NCBI RefSeq assembly: GCF_964204645.1
Contig: NC_134026.1
Span: 23,020,650 to 23,084,649, forward strand
Length of the DNA stretch: 64,000 nucleotides
Direction of reading: 5' to 3'
From: Tubulanus polymorphus
Lineage: Eukaryota; Nemertea; Palaeonemertea; Tubulaniformes; Tubulanidae
Shown here: in pieces, positions 21,614 through 44,300 of the stretch
Position numbering within the stretch: position 1 is the stretch's first letter
How the letters are laid out: every line of letters starts with the position of its first letter
The notes under the pieces: model-generated
Told to the model about the DNA's origin: nothing
The model's input: the letters and a program-made list of their open reading frames with translations, nothing else
The model's database searches: none
Translations under genes and position numbers: made by a program

Positions 21614-24115
21614 TCAACGTTGAATTGCTCGCATCAAATAGTCCTGAGGACCTAAACTGAGTCGTTGAATCCCCTTTAATGGTGGAAGTTCTATGTGATC
21701 CGGTACATCCAATTTGAAACACTGTAACAAACTCGTAAACATAAGGAAAAGTTCACGTTTTGCCAACTGATCACCGAGACAATACCTTGGCCCTGAAATC
21801 GAAAGCAAATCTTATTCATCAATCATTGATAATGATGAATTTTTTGTCGATACCAAACAGATGTCAGATATTCTTATTGTTAAGGTATATATACTAAAAA
21901 AAGCAAAGAGCATGAAAGGGTGGATGGTTAAGCTCACCCATTGAAAATGGAAGAAAACCCTTGTTTGATTTGACGAAATTTCCCTGCTCGTTGAGCCATC
22001 GCTCGGGTTTGAACGCATGCGCATCGGGCCACAGTTTTTCATCCATGTGGATACCGTAAAAGTTGAAGAAAACCATCGTGTCTTTTGGAATGTAGAAACC
22101 GTGAAATATGACATCTTCGTTGGCTGCATGTGGTGCTCCGAGTGGGGCTGGAGGCAAGATCATAATATAGAATCAATTTCGAGTCGTGTATATAACTTTA
22201 TTACATTATAATCTGACGGAAGGTTTTACGAATAGTATATACCTATGTTGCAGTGTCGGAGTAGTTCGTGTATTGTTGCCTGCATATAAGGCATTCCATC
22301 TCTATGCGTAATTTTCGGTGGGCGATCTTGTCCAATAACCTGTGCATATCAAAGTGAAAAGTCGTTTAAGAAAAAAGTCTGGCCGAGGAAATTCTACAAT
22401 TCGGCAAGTTATATTTCAAGTTTCGCTTAGGTTCTGCGTACAATGTAGGTATCGGGAACATAAAATACCTACCTGGTCAATTTCGACCTGACACCTGGCC
22501 TGGGTGTCGGGATAATGCAGCATATATAAACAGAACCATCGTAGGGCAACTTGAGTGCTTTCTATTCCCGCCATGAACAAACTATGTATCATAGTTTTTA
22601 AGGTTTCATCTGTATTTCAAAAACAAGTAGAAAGGGAGAAATAAAGAATAGAGTGTTATGAGTGTTTCTATTTTTCAATAACATATGACGTGTGTACTAC
22701 ATATGTGTGGGTAGATAATTACCTACCTCCGTAAAAACCCGAATACTCGTGTACTTTAGTGAGTTATAAACACGTATTATGTAAATGTCAATGAAACCAG
22801 TTTTGAGAGTGGCTCTTAGGGCATGGATTCGAATCGGTAGAATTAACCGTTTTTATTTTGATTTCGTCAGAGTAGTTATTTGTTATATGAAACGTTACGC
22901 ATACCCGAAAATACTTGATTATCTGCGTCTGTCTTCTGACGTAGGAGAAACACATCGATGAAATCACGAACTTTACATGCGTCGAATGTTGCCTTGTGAT
23001 CTTCTATGAATTGGGTGATTATATCATCCGTATCTTGAAGAACTTTCATCAAAATATTTGTCTAGAATTAATAATGAATTGTTTTTATGTCATTTCGTTT
23101 CGTTGATAATGGCCATTTATAGGTGTCTTATTCTTTTGTCGAGTAAACAAACCTTTGAAAATGGGTTCACAAAACCCAGGACAGGTATGTAATTCTCGAA
23201 CAGGTCTACGTGTAGAAAATTTAGGAACTTGAAAACTAACGAGATAAGCTGATTGAACTGTTTATCTTCATAATCAAATCTGAAACGAATTGCAAATCGA
23301 AGGCATTGAGATGAAATGAATTTTTTTCGAATCAAGAATACCCTTGATTAGGGCATCTGAGTCGTATTCGTGAGAGTCATAGGGACTTTTTGTTTTTTGT
23401 TTCGCTCACCTTTTCCCTAGCGTTATGGAACAAATAACATTCGCCAACGATTTCAAAGCGAGATCATTGATCATGAAAGGTTGACCAGCCTTCTTTTCAA
23501 TTTCATTTTTTAGAGCACTCATTTCGACGTTCATCCGTTCGTTGAAGAAGGCGGAACCGTAACTGAGGTTTCGAAGCGCAGATTTTGTTGCTCTCTTTAC
23601 TGTTTCTAATTCTTTGCCTCGTAACATGCCCAAGCCTAAAAATGTCAATGACGTGACGATGATTTCTAATAATATCAATCGGTTTGAAGTGAAAGAATCA
23701 TTTAGAATGGCAAATACGAACCTTTTCGTTTGAACAATTTTCCCCATATGCGCATTGCTGATTTGGGCCTGGTGCTGAACATGTGGCCATGGTCTACTAG
23801 GGCATCTTTGACAGCGGCGTTACCGTTTATAAACACAGCCAGTTTGTTTCCGAAATATAGCGAGAATATGTTGCCATGAACTCGACGGATGTCTTCAATG
23901 ACGAGATACATTTCCACGGGCCGCCGGGCTATCGTAGCGAGGTTACCGATGATTGGCCAGGAGAATGGTCCTGGTGGGTACTGATACCGGCTGCGATCCT
24001 GACTGATGTAGGCTAGATAGAATGCTAATCCAACCAATGCACACAAACAAACTATTCGAAATATCATTTGTAGGTAAAGTGAATTGACTGCAATGATTAA
24101 ATCTTCGTCGAACAT
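21614..24115 (-). CDS. Cytochrome P450, CYP2-clan type
   Basis: Eight exons in gene order: 23722-24115, 23410-23635, 23153-23279, 22905-23061, 22473-22609, 22243-22339, 21938-22147 and 21614-21792. All phases agree and give 508 aa, the usual microsomal P450 length. There is an N-terminal membrane anchor (about residues 18-36), then the proline hinge PPGP (47-50). The I-helix oxygen-binding motif is AGIEST (314-319), and the K-helix ExxR is ELLR (372-375). KPERW is present. The heme loop FSMGPRYCLG (447-456) has its cysteine ligand at 454. The protein should be an ER-bound monooxygenase using electrons from P450 reductase. CYP2-clan membership follows from the hinge sequence, the exon layout and RFDYEDKQF. 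The substrate is unknown. The stop codon overlaps a polyadenylation signal (TGAATAAA on the minus strand), so the 3' UTR may be very short. All catalytic residues are intact. Confidence 0.95.
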
Positions 24116-25267
24116 CTCGACCTAAAAAAATGTAAATAATTCATTTAGGCAAATATTAGACATATCGAATGATATTTACCAATATATTCAAATGCTCATA
24201 TTTCATGATATGCTATCCGTTCGATCAAATCAAAACAAAATATTTTTCTGTGAAGTGTATTCCAAAGTATTTGAATGATCGAAAAAATCGATATTCATGA
24301 CTCGAAAACAATTTGAAAAGGGACAACTACATTCAAACATCTTACCTCGTTTCCAGCTTGCGTGGTTCGATTACAGAGTGCATGTTGCTCGCCTTGCCCA
24401 CGATATATATGCACGCTTGCAGGTGTTAATTGAAACGATTGGATAATAAGTGGCGTTTTCAAAACAGCCGAACGAATCATTTCATCTTTTCATGTTATGA
24501 ATTTGGTTTCACAAGAGCCACTTTGGGGCGTCCGGATTCTAATACGTCCTCTCGTTCATACTGACAACTTGAAATTACCAAAACTGGACCAGGGTCGAAA
24601 TACAATCGAAAATTCATAGAAAGTCATAATCTTTCCTTATGGTAAGAAATTGTCTCGATTCTTTCAATTTTGGCATGGTGTTGGATCGTACTAGGGAACA
24701 AGGAATCTATCCTTGGAATGGTAACCATTATGGTTTACTCGATTCATCGATTCAAAGGCCTGAACCCTGTCTGTTTGGCCGCGGTGTAATCGCGTAAACA
24801 GCACAGCCATATCCTAGCTATCGCTATAGACTGATGTAAATCGTTGTCCACGCTGCGTCATTCAAGCCTTTGAGTAATTACTCCAAGTTCAAACAATGTC
24901 GATACTCTAGAGCAGTGTAAAAATGGCAATAGAAACAAGTTGTTGCATGTTATGCGTTGTTTTCTTCGTATGCCCCATTCCTCGGCACATTTGTGACCTT
25001 TCCCAATATTTCAATCCGTAACGAAGGATATGCCAAATTCATGAAGGTCTGTTGATCTGTTGATAAGGCCCTGAATAAAATGGTTTCACTGAAAAATATT
25101 ATCTCGGATCCTTGTCCATTATCAGCTGTTTCGAAAAGGAAGTTATATCTACATGGGATGCGGGTATACAAAATCAGTTTAAATCGAATTCCATCGAGCT
25201 TCTAACAAGCAGGCAGTACGCTGAATAATGGGTACATACCTTACTGGTGTTATCACATGACTGAGCG
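24116..25267. promoter_or_regulatory. Divergent upstream region between P450 and mucin-like genes
   Basis: About 1.15 kb separates the P450 start (minus strand) from the mucin-like gene start (plus strand). I see no exon or repeat of note. Both promoters should lie here, but no defined site is recognisable. Confidence 0.4.
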
Positions 25268-28806: not shown

Positions 28807-31800
28807 TTACGATATAGAATTGTCATTGTTTTGATTGTCCAGTTGAGGTTGACCGGGACTATTAGGAGTGTTGGGACTATTATCACTACTAGTACCCGTA
28901 TAAACAGTCGGCTCCTCAATACCGTCCTCGTCAGACGGGAATTCACCGAGCGGTCCGTCCGCATCTAAATCTCCGTAATAAAGTTCATCCATATAATCAA
29001 TATCGGCATCGTCATCTTCATCATCATTCCCTTCATCGTCGCTGTTACTCCACCAGTAATCTTCATCTTCATCCTCCTCGATTTCTTGCATCCCGTCGAG
29101 TATGATCACGGGATTATTCTCGGCGGATGTATCTGGTATGTTTGAATAGTAATTGTCAGCGGGTGGCTCAGACGACTCCCCGAGTTGCTGCGCTATCCGG
29201 CGATATCGCTCCTCTTTCAGAACGCCTTTCGCGCGTAGAGTCTTCGGATGCGAAGGGCCCAACACGATTTCGCTAACTTGCGCCCATTTTTTGAAATATT
29301 CATATGCTTTTCGAAAGTTTTTGTTGTCCTCGTACACGATACCAATATTTATATATAAACGTGACACTAGAATGTGATTTTCACCGTATAGCTGCATACA
29401 GATATCCATTGCTTCATTATAATACTGAAATATGAAAAAAATAAGGTACAGAATACAGTATTGCTCTATCGATCTTCTTAAAAAGCTCACATCCTGGTAC
29501 AGAAATTACAATTGCTAAATAAAATTGCTTAATCAAATTGCTAAATAATGATTGATTTATCACAGCGTATCATAGCTTCATAATCTCAGAAACCCATTCA
29601 AAAAAAAACAATGTTTAAGTATATGACCTCTAATTGTTCCTTGCTTCCTCGGGTTGCCAAAACACCCTTCGTCATCAATGCCTCGGCATAATGGCCTTCG
29701 TCGTTCAATTCCTTGAATATATGCAAAGCTGTTTTGATGTGTTCATTGCCTTCTTTGAGAGCATCAGCACCTGTCAAAGTTTCATCTGCACCACACGCCT
29801 CCCAACTTTCTAAACTGAATGCTAACTTCATCAAGCTCATTCCGAGTTTGAACTAAAACATAAATGAACAAAAGTATTCAATCAATGCCGAATCAATTTT
29901 CGAGACATATTTGATTTCTCTCGATCAAAACCAATTTATTCAAATTGCACACATTGAATATATATTTGTTACCTTGTGGTAGTCACCAGATAGAGTCTTC
30001 CTAATCGCAATGGACTGTCGATTGAATGATATAGTCTTCTTCAGGTCGGGTAGCTGAGTCGGTGATACAAAATCATTCAATTTCAATTTCTGTAAGAAAA
30101 TAATTACTGTCAGTAAAATGGCTAATCGCTGCCAGTAGCTTGACAAATAAGAAAATTAGCAGCATACATACTTCATCATAGATTTCTGCCATAAGACTGA
30201 ACAATTCAACCATACGTTCTGAACGACGGCCTAATTCTTGCTCTTCCAGTTTGAGGGCATCACGTGCCAACTCAAGGGAATGACTGTATTTACCAGCTTG
30301 CAAACTGAAATAAGAAAGTAAACTAATATCCAAGAGAAATAACATGGTTTATTCATTAAGTTTTCTTCGCTGATTTCATTGCTGAGTTCTTAACATTGTT
30401 CATCATCTGCTGAATGATCGGATAAAACTGACGGACTGACAGATCAGATAAAACTCATCATAAAACCTGAAACCAAGTGTATTACATGAAAATATCAAAA
30501 CACAAAAATATAATCACATTAGATCAACTGTAGAGAGATTAAATAGTTATATATAATTCTATCTTCAATTTCGTTAATATCAAAGTGATTTAATATTAAC
30601 ACATCCCATGTGTTTGTCTGATTAGCTCTTTATCTGAGACACCTCCCCTACGTATAACACCTACCTACAACATCGCAACACTTTTGAGTCAGAAATTACT
30701 TACTAAATTCTTGCAACATGCTGATATCTCAAAGCAACAATAGATAAATCTTGACTAGGGGAGGTCTCCAGCTGTTTTAATGCATCGGTGTAATTAGTGA
30801 CAAGATCCTCGGATTCACCAACCTTCAATAGAAAGAGCACAGACCAATAATCTCCATTTGATTTTTTCAAGAAGATACAATCATAAAATACACGATTCTT
30901 ACCTCTCTCCAATATAACAGTAGTTGAGCACTAAACTCTTCATTGTAGAGTTTGTCAAACACACTCCAATCTGTTAGACAGCGAGCCAAACGACCGGTGT
31001 CACCTAATTTTTTCAACTGATGTGGATATTCCTATAGAAAACAGATGATCTATTGGTTTTGATGCGATTGGGAGAAAATCAAATTAATCGATTAAAAATA
31101 TTCTTTAAATGTCAACAGTGTCGAAACAATGAGCAATTACTGTAGATATATTCATCTCATCAATCCGGGCAATAAGCTAGGTTCGTGGTTTCTTTCAGAG
31201 GAGGGGACCGCAAAGTAAGACGCATCAGTTCAACATTTATAAACTTCATTCATCATACTGAATTCCATTTTCGAATTTATAGTCTGGCTCCCAGATCCGA
31301 ATTTTCAGTAAAATACTGAATATTATGAGGATTGTATGAAATTTTCAAGGTTTGATAGTAACATATATGGCTCCAATTTCAGAATTTGGATTCTGTCTAC
31401 GTACAGACCGAAAATTCTCACAATCAGCAGTATCATTCTGTGTGGGAGCCAGACTATTAACAGTGTTAACTGGCTTAATATTTAAGTTGTACACATTAAA
31501 CCATGAGGCTTTACTGTGGTACACAAAGGTGATTAATTACGGTACACATTAACACATGAACTCACTTCAACTTTTCTGTCAATATTTTTAACATTCTCAA
31601 AGAAATCAGCCAACTTGCTATGCCACCAATAATGCGTATTGACCGATATGTCATCTTCATCACATGAGCCTTGTCTAAAATATCTGCATGAAGAGATATT
31701 TATTATTTTCAAGTTCATAAATGAAACAATACTTAAAAGCAAATATTACGAATTCAAATTCAAACTTATGCCTGAAAGTTGAGTAGAATGAACCAGAAGA

Positions 31801-34800
31801 GATTTAATTTTCTACACAAATGTTATTAAAATGGCTTACTTTGTGCGAACAGCTTTACTGACAGCGCGGTGATGAAAGTCAATGCGTCCATCACTGCCAT
31901 CCCCGTATGGGCGCACGAATGGTTTTATACTTTGAAACACAGATACCCAACGTTTCTCAATGTGAGCTTCGTTCTGAGAAGACTGGGACTTTTCCTTTTC
32001 AGAGCATTCCAGCTCATCTGAAATTACAAACAACACACAAACATATTGCAACGTTCATACCACTATTTCTAGAATTCAGCACTCAATTAGTTTCTGTACC
32101 TTTTTCTTCGTATGGTGAAGGAGGCATCAAATTTCTATCAGCCGAGAGGATACTGACAAGTTCACATTCGAGAAGGCCTGCTGCAGACGCTTCCAGCAAA
32201 CAAAGTGTTGCTTGGATTAAGTGTCCATCAGGCTCACTTTCAAATCGTGACAAAACCTCTTCCAACAAACTGCAATACATCATAGATAAATCATATTAAA
32301 ACGTTGATGGCGCCAATTTTCATTTACGTGAATCATTTCTATCATGAAATATTAAAATAAGTAAGTAAAATTTAATATTTTCATTGTGAAAACTGTGTCA
32401 TATTTTGATTAACTATTCAGTAGTCACTGTTCATTAGTAAATCCATTAGTTCACGCCAAGTGCAGCGCCTACGTATATCAAGAATTTCGAAGAAATTTAT
32501 GATGTGATAATGAGCACGGGAAAGGATTAAGGAGCGACAATATGATTAACTTACAATGAGGATATATTAGTTAAACAAGGATGCATTCATCATCAACAAG
32601 AAATGCCAGACTAACTCATATAAACGAGAAGGTTATCACAGTACACTTTCTCAAAATCAGTTTGGGAAAGTTCAAAACCAGTTCTTTTAGCTACAATTAC
32701 ACATTCTTTGCGATACATACTTCAGAAGACCTTCGGGAAGACTTTCAATCTTTTCAGTCAGGTCTTGTGTATCTTCAACTAGTCGAAGTTCCTCGCAAGC
32801 AAATGAAAGCCAAAGTGGATTCTCCGATGATTGCTTGCGTAATAATGTAGTCAGTTGTGGTAAGGTCAATACACGGTGGTAACGACTTAACATTTCTGTT
32901 ATTATTTCCTACAAAAAGCAACGAATTAAAACGAATGCATACTAGAATTCAATAATCAGTCATTGAATAATTTGATGCGATTAGAAAGGTAGTGCTAACT
33001 ATACCTTTCGGGAATTAATATCGAGAGGTGATATCTGTAGTTCTTGTGGTTTTGTTTCTCGCGCCACAAGCATTTTATGGTGCAGCGAATCATGAATCAT
33101 AGACAACACGCAGCGCATGTTCGGACCCAGCTTCCTTGGTAACCAGCTCAACTGAACCCCGTCTTTACCATCGGTGAACTACAAAATAATAAGTTGCAGT
33201 GATAATACCTGTAACATACTACAACTCCTTAATATGAAGAACACAGTTATGCATGTCTTATGTATTTTTGTTACCTGATTAACATCTTCTATGAATAGAA
33301 CAGTAGGAGGTGAAGCTGGATTAGCCAAATAATGGCAGCACATCTGACAAGCACCTAACAAATCTTTCGGCATAGAAGATTCCTATTAACAGAAGTCAAA
33401 ACAAAATATCTTATCTGATACTATTACCAAGACATTAGCAGGATCCATTAAGAAAACATGGCTGCCTGCAAAAAAATTATCATCATGAGAGTCATTAACA
33501 ATTAACATATACTAAAATAAGTAAAGTAACATTGATGATGTTAGAGGGAGATATGAAAGAGGCAGCCATGTTTTCTGGAAGACTTTTTCTATGATTATGA
33601 AGCATTATGCTATTGAATACGTACGGTTACAATATCCATTTCGCGTAGAAAACGTTTCAGCATTCGTTCAAGGTCGGTCGATCCCGGAATGGCACCGACA
33701 AAATGATAAAATACACGCCATACTTGTGCACCGACCCTGTCAATATTTACGGCACACAATTTTAGACAATCCAATAGATATTATGACGACAATTCTAAAG
33801 CCATTCACATTACTGACCCTGGTAATCGACGATCTTTAGCTTTGTTCATAGTAGTATCAACGATCTTAGACATGATTGACGATTTCCCGGATCCTGCCCC
33901 TCCCAGAAGAAGCAATGGAACATCTTTTTCACCTTTCACGATATAATCTTCGATCTAGAAACGATAATTGAGTAGTCCGAGATTTATAGATCAGGGCACA
34001 AAGGCTTCCAAGAGACTAATGAGCACTCTGGTACATCATGAATACATCATGAAACATGATCAATTAAAACACAGTTCTAACGACACTCACCTGTGACAAA
34101 ATATCATCGCGTCCCTTTATTAGAGCGCTTTTACTTCGCATGAAATTTTCATGAAGCTGACGAGCTAACTCGCATGGAGTTTGCACTGACTCGGTGACCG
34201 GGTTAGACTTAAAATTCATCTTAGAGCGGAAAAATTCCATTATCTTAAAAATTCAGAATACACCAAATCATACGAGGTTAGACTTAAAACTCATCTTAGA
34301 ATGTAACAATTCAATAATCTTGAGAATTCAGAATATACAAAGTCAGAACACCACTGAAACTGTTGGAACAAACAATGATCTGAGTTCTACACTTACCTGC
34401 TCTCTGAAAGTGTCATCAACTCGAAATGTTTCAGCCTCTGTGACTTCATAACCAAATTTCTTCACTTTATCCTGATAAAGAAATATACCGGTACTTATGA
34501 AACAGAATTTGTATATTTTCAGGATATGCAAAATACTTATTTGAAAATGTCAATACAAATGGTACCTGAAACTTTTCTAAAGATGGCGTAACGACCTTTC
34601 CTTTTAATCGCTGTTTTAACGTTTGGTTGGTTATGTAATGACTCGTATCGCGATCCTCAGAAGTTAAATATTCAAGAAACTTATCCTCTCTAACAATGAA
34701 CAACACTGAAAATTTGAATACGAAAATCAATCAAATCTGGACTTTGAGAAATAATTCTTCATGTTCCATATCCCCAAAATCTTCAGAAATATTACTTAAA

Positions 34801-35793
34801 TATAAACCCTCCGAAGACAGACCTTTAAGAATTTTAACATGTATGCCTGGAGCAGTATCTTTTCATTGGTCACTAAATTACATTCCACTATTCCATGGAT
34901 AACCTTGTTTAACCTATTTTTGTTATCACTTACCATTATCATTGTCTTCACGATATGCACCATACAACAAATCTAAATCAACATCAGACACATTCATACC
35001 CTCCTGGTAATGTTTTACTACGGATTCCTCATGATCTCCCCACAATGGTACGAGTTCCAAGGTGCAACTATCAATAAATACAATTTCAGGATTATCAGAT
35101 GAATGATCCATCTGAATGAAATTAACAAATAGTACGTATGTTAGTTCAAATATCTTTCATTTTAACCTCGTAATATTAATGAAATATGGCATCAGATTGT
35201 GGAAGTATAGGTCTTGGATAACCTTTGATGTTTTAGCCATTAACGAAGGATCTTGGGTCTTTCCTCCATCACCCTGCGACAAAGAAAAACATGCGTTCAA
35301 AATGAATAAACAACGTAGACAATCAGCATTCAGCTATAACCCTTTTGAAAGACTCAAACACTATAAAATGCTTACCCATCTGATGTCATATTCCTGCAGC
35401 AACATACCCCGACTTTCTATCCATGCTCGTAATTCTGGCAAAATCTATTGGAAGCAAACACAATATTCTTCTATATCGGCAAACACAGTAAACGTATAGA
35501 CTCAGTCGAACTCACTGACTAGGGACTGACCAGATTAAGTAGAATCCGAATTATGAATGATAGTTTACAATGGTTCTAAGTGGACCAAATATTTCATTCA
35601 AATTAAGTGAAAATCTGGATTGAATAACCCGAGTAAAACAGTTCTACAGTAGGTCTATAACAGTCCTACAATTCAGTCATAAAGCATAGAAGATTACCTG
35701 GTTGAATACGACTTGTCTTTCAGCATGGAAGTCACCACTGTATGACGTGACGAATACATGTACATGTGAAACATCGAGGCTAAATTTCGGCAT
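28807..35793 (-). CDS. DUF4062-NACHT-TPR protein, TTC41-like
   Basis: 21 exons in gene order: 35698-35793, 35376-35444, 35223-35273, 34934-35111, 34566-34705, 34397-34471, 34091-34207, 33818-33954, 33625-33736, 33275-33382, 33005-33178, 32721-32908, 32100-32269, 31840-32017, 31566-31674, 30903-31031, 30704-30822, 30172-30304, 29973-30089, 29628-29852 and 28807-29424. Every phase agrees, giving 1080 aa. Residues 1-140 form a DUF4062 domain (VHVFVTSYSGDF, HAERQ, YDIRWG). A NACHT-type ATPase follows, with Walker A GGAGSGKS (260-267), FYHFVGAIPGST and Walker B TVLFIED (352-358). Next comes a helical region with LPEGLL and the winged-helix-like segment after it. Tetratricopeptide repeats fill about 690-960. 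The tail (about 988-1060) is strongly acidic with DED runs. The architecture matches vertebrate TTC41. Members of this STAND ATPase class are switch proteins that oligomerise on a ligand; the ligand here is unknown. Donors at 35223 (GTTATC) and 29628 (GTCATA) are weak, so those borders are less sure. Confidence 0.88.
31281..31457. mobile_element. Short MITE with 14-bp inverted repeats and TTA target duplication
   Basis: TAGTCTGGCTCCCA at the left end and TGGGAGCCAGACTA at the right end are exact reverse complements about 175 bp apart. TTA directly flanks both ends in the same orientation. A 3-bp TWA duplication is typical of PIF/Harbinger elements, so a Harbinger-type MITE is likely. It sits in the intron between the 31566-31674 and 30903-31031 exons of the NACHT-TPR gene and has no coding capacity. 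Confidence 0.75.
34201..34341. repeat. 75-bp tandem duplication at a splice acceptor
   Basis: GGTTAGACTTAAAATTCATC at 34201 recurs at 34276 with few changes, and the similarity continues to TTCAGAATACAC / TTCAGAATATAC. On the minus strand the first copy contains the 3' splice site of the 34091-34207 exon (TTTTAAG before TCTAAC). The second copy, upstream in the gene, carries a duplicate of that acceptor inside the intron. Confidence 0.8.
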
Positions 35794-40114: not shown

Positions 40115-41371
40115 TCATCTTGCCTTGCCGTGGTTATTTTTCTGGTAAGGATGGGCGACATTTGGATTTTCATTGACGTAGCCGGTGATGTCATAACCGT
40201 TGTACAAATGCCGTCTCTTTCGCTTGCAGCCGAGCAACGCTCGGAACGCATTGCGAAACTCACGATTGAAAAATGCATAAATAATCGGATTCAGCGAAGA
40301 ATTTAGATAACCGATCCAAAAAAGTACGGAGACAAGCAGGTCCGAGTGAGGGCAGGATTTTCCGCACATAGCCACGATGAAATACCACAAGAAAAACGGC
40401 AACCAACATGCAATAAAAGCGCCCATAATGATGCCTAACGTTTTGGCGGCTTTGTGTTCGCGTCTCATTTTCTTGCGATCTTGACGATTGTGCAGGACGA
40501 GGGTGTTCTCATTGTCGGTGGAACCCTCGTCAGTGGTGATGTGATAACTACCGTTACTGTTATTGCCTGTCGAATCCAAGCTATTCGTTCGCACCGGGGG
40601 CACCTGTCGCAGTGGCACCATCAATCGTTGCATAGCTTTGATTTGTTTCTCTTGTCGTTTCGCCTCTTTGAATATTTTCACGTACACGAATACCATGATC
40701 ACGGCCGGTATCCAAAACGAAACCGTCGACGAAATGCCTGCATATATTTTGTTCACGACGAAAATGCATAACTCCGGATTCTCGGACATTTTCCCAATGC
40801 TGTCAGACGTTGTGTACAGGTTAGAATGGATGGGAATCTGAGACACCAGGGCGCTCGCACCCCAAGTTACGCACAGCATAATGATAACTTTTCTCTTGGT
40901 CATTTTTGCCTCGTACTGCAGCGGCTTCGTAATCGCGATGTAACGATCCATGCTGATACAGCACAAATGCAATATCGAAGCCGTTGAAAATAGAACGTCA
41001 TTGGCGTTGAAAATATCGCACATGATTCGCCCAAAAAGCCACCGTCCATTCGTCAGCTCGATGCTCGCGTTGAACGGCATTACGCAAGTAGCCACCAGGA
41101 AATCCGCAAACGCAAGCGACACGATGAAATAACTAGTAATTCCACGAAGTCTTTTGAATCTAAACACGCTTAGTATAACTAAAGAATTTCCGAACGCAGC
41201 GCCAACCATTATGGCCACCATGGCGAACCCTTTGAGAATAGCTATCGCGGTTGATTGGTCTTCATTTTCAGCGTCACTGCCACCGACGCCGCTGCGGGTA
41301 CTGTTTACCAAATTCGTTTGGTTAGATATTCTATCCGATGATGATAAATTCCACGCCCGTCCATACTCCAT
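40115..41371 (-). CDS. Beta-adrenergic-like octopamine receptor (class A GPCR)
   Basis: An intronless frame encodes 418 aa from the ATG at 41371. The extracellular N-terminus has NLS, NQT and NST glycosylation sites. Class A landmarks are all present: LAFAD with D90 (2.50), C118 paired with C202, DRY at 142-144, W170, CWLP at 322-325, NPIIY at 361-365 and C382 as a palmitoylation candidate. The aminergic pocket is complete: D125 (3.32) for the amine, and S214, S215 and S218 in helix 5 for the ring hydroxyl. STASILHLCCISMDRY and VLFWIGYLNSSLNPIIYA match insect and annelid Oct-beta receptors closely. Such receptors sit in the plasma membrane, respond to octopamine and usually raise cAMP through Gs. 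A tyramine, dopamine D1-like or other amine ligand cannot be fully excluded. The region upstream of the start is the 22.6 kb without genes. Confidence 0.92.
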   Translation of the reverse strand: MEYGRAWNLSSSDRISNQTNLVNSTRSGVGGSDAENEDQSTAIAILKGFAMVAIMVGAAFGNSLVILSVFRFKRLRGITSYFIVSLAFADFLVATCVMPFNASIELTNGRWLFGRIMCDIFNANDVLFSTASILHLCCISMDRYIAITKPLQYEAKMTKRKVIIMLCVTWGASALVSQIPIHSNLYTTSDSIGKMSENPELCIFVVNKIYAGISSTVSFWIPAVIMVFVYVKIFKEAKRQEKQIKAMQRLMVPLRQVPPVRTNSLDSTGNNSNGSYHITTDEGSTDNENTLVLHNRQDRKKMRREHKAAKTLGIIMGAFIACWLPFFLWYFIVAMCGKSCPHSDLLVSVLFWIGYLNSSLNPIIYAFFNREFRNAFRALLGCKRKRRHLYNGYDITGYVNENPNVAHPYQKNNHGKAR

Positions 41372-44300
41372 AATAAACACGAAAATTCGTATCGGATATC
41401 ATCGGTTACATTTTTGCCGTGCTTTAAACGTTCGACCCATCGTGAGAAAGATGCCCTGAAATGAGAAAATAGAATAAAATCGACTAAATTTTACTGTTCA
41501 ATTCAATATGTGGTTTGATATATCGTGCACAGCGTGATGGTCAAGATGGTGGCGGATGCTGTCTAACAAGTGTATTAGACATAATTGACTGGAGATAAAC
41601 CAAATGTAATTGTATATCCAATGAGCAATGGTCGTGTGAGCTAAATGATAATTATTGCTAACGAGGGAAAGCGAGTCAAGGCAGTACACACAAAAAAAAA
41701 TCATCCATTCAGTATAACCGGTGGTGAGACCGCATCCAACACTATTTTCACGCGTAAAACCAGGAAACAGAAAATTTAGACCTGACAGAATGATACGACG
41801 AAGGTTATAACGAGTGAGGTGCTTGGGATACAAAGATATTTAGATGAAACGATTTGATCCAGTTTGTTGCCAATATGAAGTAATAAAGCCTGCAGTGAGA
41901 TTTGATCAGGGAATATTTGTATGTAGATAGTCATACCTTCCACATACATATTATTATACACACAAAGGAAGGAAATTTCTGTTTTCTTCTTATTTACTCC
42001 CAGAATATTAATCGGTAAAATATGTATATAATATATGATATTCAGTCGCCACGGAATTCGACATCTCATTAATGCATCATATGCCATTTAAGATCTACAT
42101 CTCCGCCTCGATATGAATAATTTGTTTTCATATAAAAGGAAACGTGTCCAACCGATATTTCGATGATTGTAACATATACTAATAATTAATGGAGCTGTGG
42201 AATGTACTCGGCTGATTAAAGTTTCAAATATCATCTAATGTCAATTTTAATACACAGTGATAATATTAGCCTAAACTTTCAATGAATCAGTCAATTGATC
42301 GCCATTTTCAAGAGGTTTTATGCAAATCAATTGACAGGTGATTATCGTTTGATTAAAGAAATAAAATGAGGACCCTTAGTTTCATGCGTTAACATTTGGA
42401 TGAATCATTAAATTTCGCAGACACCGTTTTTAAAGATTTTCCCATTGTTAATTATTCTCAAGTGAATCAGTTCATCACACATCATTCATGAATTCGGAAT
42501 GCACGACTTAAAAGCAATATACGAATGTCTTAGATGTTAAAACTGAATAGATCGAGAGATAGTACCATACGCATCTCATTTTTCATTACATGAAACCAAA
42601 TAAAAATCAAACCATGTAGGCTAGCTCACGGAGAACAAAGAATGATTTAAATGTCCACAATCTTTGGAGATATAATCAACCGTGGAGAGCGGGGAACACG
42701 CAAGAAATTGATAAGTATACGGCAAATATCGATGAATACAAACGATCACCGGCTTGCAAATACATAATACTGTAGTACAAGATAATTTCCTGCTGTTAGG
42801 TGGCAAATGGCGTGTCCGTGAAGCCCATACGCGCCATACTTGAAACGAGTTATGTTGCGTATGGAAAATCGATAGATAACATTGATGACTGAGATTCGAA
42901 GATCTCCGTCATTCATGAACGAAGCGATTTCTCTACGAATGTAGAAATTCTAATTTTTAACCCAACCCATCCTTAAAGCTGAAAGAACACTCGACTGCGT
43001 GAGCTTATTTTTGGGGAAATAGATATCTTCACAGTAACTGAAAAACATATTCGCTACGCTCGACGAAGTGAATGTTTTGCAAACTGCAGTTTCCTGATGT
43101 CATCTAGTCCGGAAATGCGTTGGCTTTGTTAAGAAAGGCTTCAGATACATTTGGCGCCTTCGATGGTAGGATGAGAAATTTTGCTGAACTGAAACCGACA
43201 TCGCCTTTGGCTATAAATGTGACCCGACAAATCGTTCGGAAGTTTCGGTTCTTTGATTCTGGCCTGAAACAACATCCAGGCTCAATCACCGCATAACTCA
43301 AGTAGCTATTAAGCCGTCGTCTGCGACGACAAGGCACGAACAGTTCGCATCCATTCGCTTTTACAAATTGACGATGAATCTCGGAGATAAGTTTTAAGAG
43401 ACATCGGCGCAATGGCATTTCAACGATTAATTGAATTTTGCCTCCTTGAGTGTCAGGTTTCAATTGATTAAACGGCTTGATATGAACGTTCAACAGTCTC
43501 CGGAATGCCGTTTCAACGGGAACGCCTAGCATCGACCTTTGCGTCTTATCATATACTCTCCCAAATGCTTGTTTATACAGACCCCAAGCTACCAAATAAC
43601 GAGAATGGTATTTTGATAATTAACGGTGCAAAAACCATGCGCAAAATACCTAAAATGTGGATTTAAGAGGGATACGAATAGGGATATGTTATGTTATGTA
43701 ACTGTTAGAAGTACCATATTGATCGAACAAACATCTCACAAAAGCATGTTTCCTATTTTATGACTGGTCGACTGTATTGCGATAAGAAGCAGTGTGGTAT
43801 ATATAGCCAAAGATAAAAAAACTACGCCAAATCTGAACGTCGTGTACCATAGTTACCATTCCTCTGGTGTGCGAACGTATTATCATAACACTCGTTAGTT
43901 AGCGTAATGGCTATAAAAGTTAGACATGCCCACACCACTACCTACACAACGAGACATATATTACCGGCACTTGCGAATATACCCGTAAACGAACAAAGTG
44001 CCACGGATAACAATATCAATCATACGAAGATACCAACAGATGGACACGTAAAAAACTTCAACGCATGCTCATCTCTTCATTGTTTCACGAATTCAGGAAT
44101 AAATCAATAGCGAATTGGCGAATACCCGGAAACGGAACTGTCATTTCCGGTTGATTATACTGCATAGAACCTTTTTAAAGGCTAAGCTTCGACTGCTTTG
44201 ATGTGCAACAGTGAACCAAAAATTTTAAAGATACCTGGAGTGATTGGAGAGTTCTTCGCCGGGTCACCAAGACGAAGGCGAAGATCTTAAAAAGCATCGC

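What the first reader, a model, noticed from the sequence alone, without database searches (positions are those of the whole stretch)
28807..35793. Complete DUF4062-NACHT-TPR gene with an acidic tail
21 exons chain in phase into a 1080-aa STAND-type ATPase with intact Walker A and B. It has a DUF4062 N-terminus, TPR repeats and a strongly acidic C-terminal tail of about 70 residues. DUF4062-NACHT proteins with TPR sensors are poorly understood, and the human relative TTC41 is a pseudogene. The acidic tail has no match that I know. An innate-immune or ciliary sensor role is speculation.
Basis: partly seen in the sequence, partly recalled or inferred. Interest (0 to 1): 0.6.

Follow-up and report, generated by a model that had tools for sequence, protein, structure and literature searches.

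The report
Immune-type ATPase with decayed NADase domain
This animal gene makes a sensor ATPase of the kind used in innate immunity, but its front domain, which in relatives can destroy the cell fuel NAD+, has lost its active-site residues while the rest of the machine stayed under constraint, so it probably works as a regulator or detector and not as a killer enzyme.

Summary
The gene is real: 21 exons chain in phase on the minus strand (35793-28807, 1099 aa). A full-length sister gene on another contig shares 17 of 20 intron positions and has exons of exactly 107 and 134 nt there.

It is not the TTC41 orthologue. That gene lies elsewhere in this genome, about 12.5 kb from GRP94. The NPHP3 and TEP1 orthologues are also separate genes.

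Architecture: DUF4062-like, NACHT, winged helix, TPR, acidic tail. The same DUF4062-NACHT-TPR layout occurs in bacteria (8 of 8 long proteins scanned). DUF4062 has been reported to be a TIR-like NADase (PMC13174449). Here it is degenerate: Pfam does not detect it, the catalytic Glu is Asp123, the active-site Arg is Thr93, and four more columns invariant in 25 relatives are broken, including Walker B (Asp to Glu, residue 373). Excess change is confined to DUF4062 (37 window-only against 3 sister-only changes). NACHT and winged helix evolve at the sister's rate, so this is not a decaying pseudogene.

Best reading: a STAND protein with a dead TIR-like effector, acting as sensor or regulator. The two paralogues checked lack the acidic tail.

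The parts
28807..35793 (-). whole coding gene, 21 exons, 1099 aa
   Evidence: 17 of 20 introns shared with sister gene
   Evidence: sister exon 107 nt, same phase and residues
34934..35067 (-). exon 4, corrected (134 nt; acceptor after GATAG)
   Evidence: sister exon 134 nt; local acceptor score 6.4, within the range of the other acceptors
34403..35769 (-). degenerate DUF4062 / TIR-like domain, residues 9-205 (exons 1-6)
   Evidence: alignment A1; relative-rate test; no Pfam DUF4062 match
34971..34973 (-). codon of Asp123 at the catalytic Glu position (TEP1 E1008)
35061..35063 (-). codon of Thr93 at the active-site Arg position (TEP1 R976)
32864..34117 (-). NACHT ATPase, residues 250-450 (exons 7-12)
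   Evidence: AAA_16 30.0 bits and NACHT 25.1 bits, each just under its curated cut-off; aligned to paralogues
33880..33903 (-). Walker A GGAGSGKS, residues 276-283
33275..33301 (-). Walker B region VLFIEDVNQ, residues 369-377; Asp to Glu at 373
31011..32863 (-). helical / winged-helix region, residues 451-660
   Evidence: HTH_NWD1 18.7 bits, below cut-off; conserved with paralogues
29227..30923 (-). TPR region, about residues 690-960
   Evidence: TPR_12, TPR_10; kinesin light chain TPR in PDB, E 7e-5
28912..29121 (-). acidic tail, residues 996-1065 (32 D/E, 0 K/R), then a tail rich in N, P and S
   Evidence: absent from sister and C10 paralogue

Best explanation
The gene encodes a cytosolic STAND ATPase of the DUF4062-NACHT-TPR group whose TIR-like NADase effector domain is inactive, a pseudo-enzyme. 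Proposed working: TPRs bind a ligand or partner; the NACHT, slowed by the Asp-to-Glu change in Walker B, exchanges nucleotide and oligomerises; the TIR-like domain keeps its fold as an assembly surface but cannot cleave NAD+. Output would come through a partner, most simply the catalytically equipped sister protein or another DUF4062 protein, so the gene acts as a sensor subunit or a brake. Shown: gene structure, domain order, loss of active-site residues, and domain-specific acceleration with a constrained ATPase. Inferred: loss of NADase activity, oligomerisation, and the partner.
For: DUF4062 is reported to be a TIR-like NADase with catalytic E1008 and active-site R908 and R976 in human TEP1 (PMC13174449). 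With the solved chain 11gz numbered from 894, all four residues named in the paper fall on the right letters. In the window protein E1008 is Asp123 and R976 is Thr93. In 83 prokaryotic DUF4062 domains the Arg is kept in 83 of 83 and the Glu in 79 of 80 with a letter; the five animal relatives in the tree set keep both. The window protein breaks six columns invariant in 25 relatives (T18, R93, G95, T120, E123, D373) but keeps the structural ones F14, S17, R26, D52, R54, W55 and S118. Relative-rate test: DUF4062 core 37 window-only against 3 sister-only changes (p 2e-8); NACHT 22:11 and winged helix 19:12, not significant. Full-length human NWD1, NWD2 and NPHP3 also showed no NADase activity (PMC13174449), so inactive DUF4062 STAND proteins have precedent.
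Against: Asp can sometimes replace Glu in catalysis, and one prokaryotic homologue also has Asp there. No assay, expression or structure is available. Partnership with the sister is inferred from paralogy alone; the two genes lie on different contigs. NADase activity of the sister is not shown either: its R908 position is Lys.
Confidence: 0.62

Rival explanations
1. It is still an active NADase with altered chemistry or substrate, Asp123 replacing Glu.
For: Acidic residue kept; core positions R26, D52, R54, W55 and S118 kept; one prokaryotic homologue has Asp at this position.
Against: The invariant Arg, Gly and Thr of the pocket are lost together and the excess change covers the whole domain.
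Confidence: 0.1
2. It is an early pseudogene or a gene under general relaxation.
For: Long branch: 1.2 against 0.3 changes per site in the sister; Walker B Asp lost.
Against: No stop or frameshift in 21 exons, all splice sites GT-AG; NACHT and winged helix keep 28 of 37 and 33 of 36 conserved columns.
Confidence: 0.1
3. It is a ciliary scaffold like NPHP3, with TPR and acidic tail as binding surfaces, and no link to immunity.
For: Best Pfam hit is TPR_NPHP3 (63.7 bits, below the cut-off of 100).
Against: The NPHP3 orthologue is a separate intronless gene (334.9 bits) that lies far from this gene in the tree. Bacterial homologues also match TPR_NPHP3, so the hit says nothing about cilia.
Confidence: 0.15
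4. It is the TTC41 orthologue.
For: Shared DUF4062-NACHT-TPR layout.
Against: A different gene with that layout sits about 12.5 kb from GRP94 on C3, the known mammalian neighbourhood of TTC41; the window gene is outside that branch.
Confidence: 0.03

Closest known systems
TEP1 TIR-like domain (human, PDB 11gz; PMC13174449)
   Same: DUF4062 fold family placed before a NACHT
   Different: TEP1 has catalytic E1008, R976 and R908 and is an active NADase with WD40 repeats; here Asp, Thr and Gly stand at those places, and TPRs replace WD40
Swarozyc and other prokaryotic DUF4062 proteins
   Same: 8 of 8 long prokaryotic proteins scanned have DUF4062-NACHT/AAA-TPR in the same order
   Different: they keep the active-site Glu and Arg nearly without exception; the described Swarozyc system uses a different auxiliary domain
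NPHP3
   Same: NACHT followed by kinesin-light-chain-like TPRs; human NPHP3 inactive in the NADase assay (PMC13174449)
   Different: NPHP3 has an N-terminal coiled-coil-like region and a far diverged TIR-like domain; its orthologue here is another gene
TTC41 (Gnn, GRP94 neighbour)
   Same: DUF4062-NACHT-TPR layout
   Different: different gene; likely orthologue found near GRP94 on C3 and outside this gene's clade
Plant NRC-dependent sensor NLRs (PMC6944444)
   Same: N-terminal executor motif decays in one branch while the ATPase stays (analogy only)
   Different: coiled-coil MADA motif, LRR sensor, no homology of the effector

Membership tests
DUF4062-NACHT-TPR STAND group | N-terminal domain homologous to DUF4062 | tested here: met
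   Aligned over its length to paralogues (30% identity to sister, invariant F14, R26, D52, R54, W55, S118) with shared introns; the Pfam model itself is not reached
DUF4062-NACHT-TPR STAND group | NACHT with Walker A and Walker B | tested here: inconclusive
   Walker A intact; Walker B Asp is Glu373 where 25 of 25 relatives have Asp; NACHT 25.1 bits against cut-off 26.7
DUF4062-NACHT-TPR STAND group | C-terminal TPRs | tested here: met
   TPR_12 46.3 and TPR_10 37.8 bits, above cut-offs
DUF4062-NACHT-TPR STAND group | phylogenetic placement | tested here: met
   sister to C1 gene 100/98; four-gene clade 100/100
TIR-like NADases (active) | catalytic Glu (TEP1 E1008) | tested here: not met
   Asp123
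TIR-like NADases (active) | active-site Arg (TEP1 R976) | tested here: not met
   Thr93
TIR-like NADases (active) | NAD+ hydrolysis | not testable with these tools
   needs an assay
TTC41 | orthology / GRP94 neighbourhood | tested here: not met
   separate gene beside GRP94; that mammalian TTC41 neighbours GRP94 is from general knowledge
NPHP3 | TPR_NPHP3 above curated cut-off | tested here: not met
   63.7 bits against 100; the orthologue scores 334.9
NWD1/NWD2 | NWD1 winged helix above cut-off and WD40 repeats | tested here: not met
   HTH_NWD1 18.7 bits against 27, no WD40 match
TEP1 | orthology | tested here: not met
   TEP1-like gene on C2 at 19.80-19.83 Mb with SSTFRDMHGERD

The most novel reading that the evidence does not exclude
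An animal sensor-executor pair built on TIR-like NADase STAND proteins: after duplication, one copy (C1) kept the NADase residues and the other (this gene) lost them, gained an acidic tail and became the detector or regulator that must assemble with the active copy, as in plant sensor and helper NLRs.
Probability: 0.15. Interest if true: 0.7.

Novelty: new variant of a known kind. Interest (0 to 1): 0.42.

Why it matters
DUF4062 was only recently reported to be an NAD+-destroying TIR-like domain. An animal paralogue pair in which one copy keeps and the other loses the catalytic residues, while the ATPase stays constrained, is a natural experiment on whether these proteins act by NADase activity or by assembly alone. 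It also shows that animals carry the same DUF4062-NACHT-TPR architecture as bacteria.

Tried and rejected
TTC41 identity: tested through GRP94; the HSP90 near the sister gene on C1 is the cytosolic one (ends in MEEID), so that linkage means nothing. NPHP3 identity: rejected. PADLOC search: no specific hit for the window protein, and a weak Avs1b match for the sister. Literature for TTC41 or DDB_G0287407 gave nothing useful. A pseudogene reading was tested by relative rates and found unlikely.

Full report
The window lies in an unnamed animal genome of 267.8 Mb in 77 contigs (G000:C2:23020650-23084649). That it is an animal is inferred from orthologues of NPHP3, TEP1 and TTC41 and a rhodopsin-type GPCR. 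I rebuilt the gene from the minus strand. Twenty-one exons with GT-AG borders read through in one frame from ATG 35793 to TAA 28807, with an in-frame stop shortly upstream of the ATG.

A genome search found a paralogue on contig C1 at about 548.5-556.6 kb. The two genes share 17 of 20 intron positions and phases, and the sister's exons 3 and 4 are 107 and 134 nt, with MPYFLNMT/S at the junction. The window has MPYFINIT/S with exons of 107 and 134 nt if exon 3 ends at 35167 and exon 4 starts at 35067. The protein is therefore 1099 aa. The other weak donor, 29628, matches an intron of the sister at residue 894.

Pfam finds TPR repeats and weak NACHT and AAA_16 matches, but no DUF4062. The sister does match DUF4062 (26.9 bits) and matches the solved TIR-like domain of human telomerase protein component 1, chain 11gz (72 bits, E 5e-19). 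A 2026 preprint reports that DUF4062 is a family of TIR-like NADases, with TEP1 E1008 catalytic and R908, R954 and R976 in the active site, and that full-length human NWD1, NWD2 and NPHP3 did not hydrolyse NAD+ (PMC13174449). If the 220-residue chain is numbered 894-1113, all four named residues fall on R, R, R and E, which fixes the columns.

At these columns the window protein has Gly20 (R908), Thr93 (R976) and Asp123 (E1008). The R908 column is variable among relatives (the sister has Lys). The other two are not: in 83 prokaryotic domains fetched with patterns that do not include these columns, the Arg is present in 83 of 83 and the Glu in 79 of 80 with a letter. Over 25 relatives (5 from this genome, 20 prokaryotic), six columns that never vary are broken in the window protein: T18Y, R93T, G95E, T120V, E123D and, in Walker B, D373E. 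F14, S17, R26, D52, R54, W55 and S118 are kept.

The excess change is confined to this domain. Against the C10 paralogue as outgroup, the first 127 aligned residues hold 37 changes unique to the window protein and 3 unique to the sister (p 2e-8). The NACHT gives 22:11 and the winged helix 19:12, neither significant. Other outgroups agree. Of columns conserved in at least four of five relatives, the window protein keeps 26 of 58 in DUF4062, 28 of 37 in NACHT and 33 of 36 in the winged helix. A gene decaying as a whole would not show this, nor keep 21 exons open.

Orthology: in trees the window protein is sister to the C1 gene (100/98) inside a four-gene clade (100/100) with C10:12.03 Mb and C1:28.45 Mb. 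NPHP3 is a separate intronless 1349-aa gene on C10, TEP1 is on C2 near 19.81 Mb, and NWD1-like genes are elsewhere. TTC41 is most likely the DUF4062-NACHT-TPR gene at C3:22.5537-22.565 Mb. It starts about 12.5 kb from the gene identified as GRP94 from its sequence; that TTC41 neighbours GRP94 in mammals is general knowledge. No vertebrate TTC41 sequence was available, so this rests on synteny and architecture.

Eight of eight long prokaryotic relatives scanned carry DUF4062, NACHT/AAA and TPR in the same order, so the architecture is widespread and probably old. I do not claim direction or time of transfer.

The acidic tail (residues 996-1065, 32 acidic and no basic residues) continues the last exon. 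The sister gene stops soon after the same TPR and so does the C10 paralogue. It is therefore specific to this gene against the two paralogues checked; orthologues in other species could not be searched.

Mechanism. Shown: structure, domain order, loss of active-site residues, domain-limited acceleration. Inferred: no NADase activity, a slowed ATPase from Walker B Glu, assembly through the kept fold, and output through a partner. In plant NLR networks the executor motif decays in sensor receptors that rely on helpers (PMC6944444); this is an analogy, not homology. The verdict is a new variant of a known kind, with no functional data.

Noticed in passing
window 34201-34270 and 34276-34345: A 70-nt tandem duplication (83% identical) of the intron 6 / exon 7 border, with a second acceptor-like site and a partial copy of the exon start that runs into a stop.
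   Followed up: partly
G000:C3:22535000-22565000 (L040-L043): A TTC41-like gene lies about 12.5 kb from GRP94, apparently the same neighbourhood as in mammals, which would be a very old gene pair.
   Followed up: partly
L030, G000:C10:9493200-9497249: The NPHP3 orthologue is a single open frame of 1349 codons without introns, which may point to a retrocopy replacing the original gene.
   Followed up: no
L031, L032, L036, L037, L038: Several NWD1-like genes (winged helix plus WD40-like repeats) have very long single-exon frames of about 700-1800 codons, a possible lineage expansion.
   Followed up: no
L045-L124: DUF4062-NACHT-TPR proteins of 1000-1500 aa are common across bacterial phyla and occur in archaea; their active-site Glu and Arg are almost invariant.
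   Followed up: partly
window 40115-41398 (-) and 23406-24121 (-): An intronless rhodopsin-type GPCR (7tm_1, 235 bits) and the first exons of a cytochrome P450 gene.
   Followed up: no
window 33440-33590 and 31270-31460 (-): Introns 9 and 15 seem by eye to carry imperfect inverted repeats (AGAAAACATGGCTGCC and AGTCTGGCTCCCA with their complements), like short mobile elements; the repeat finder did not list them.
   Followed up: no
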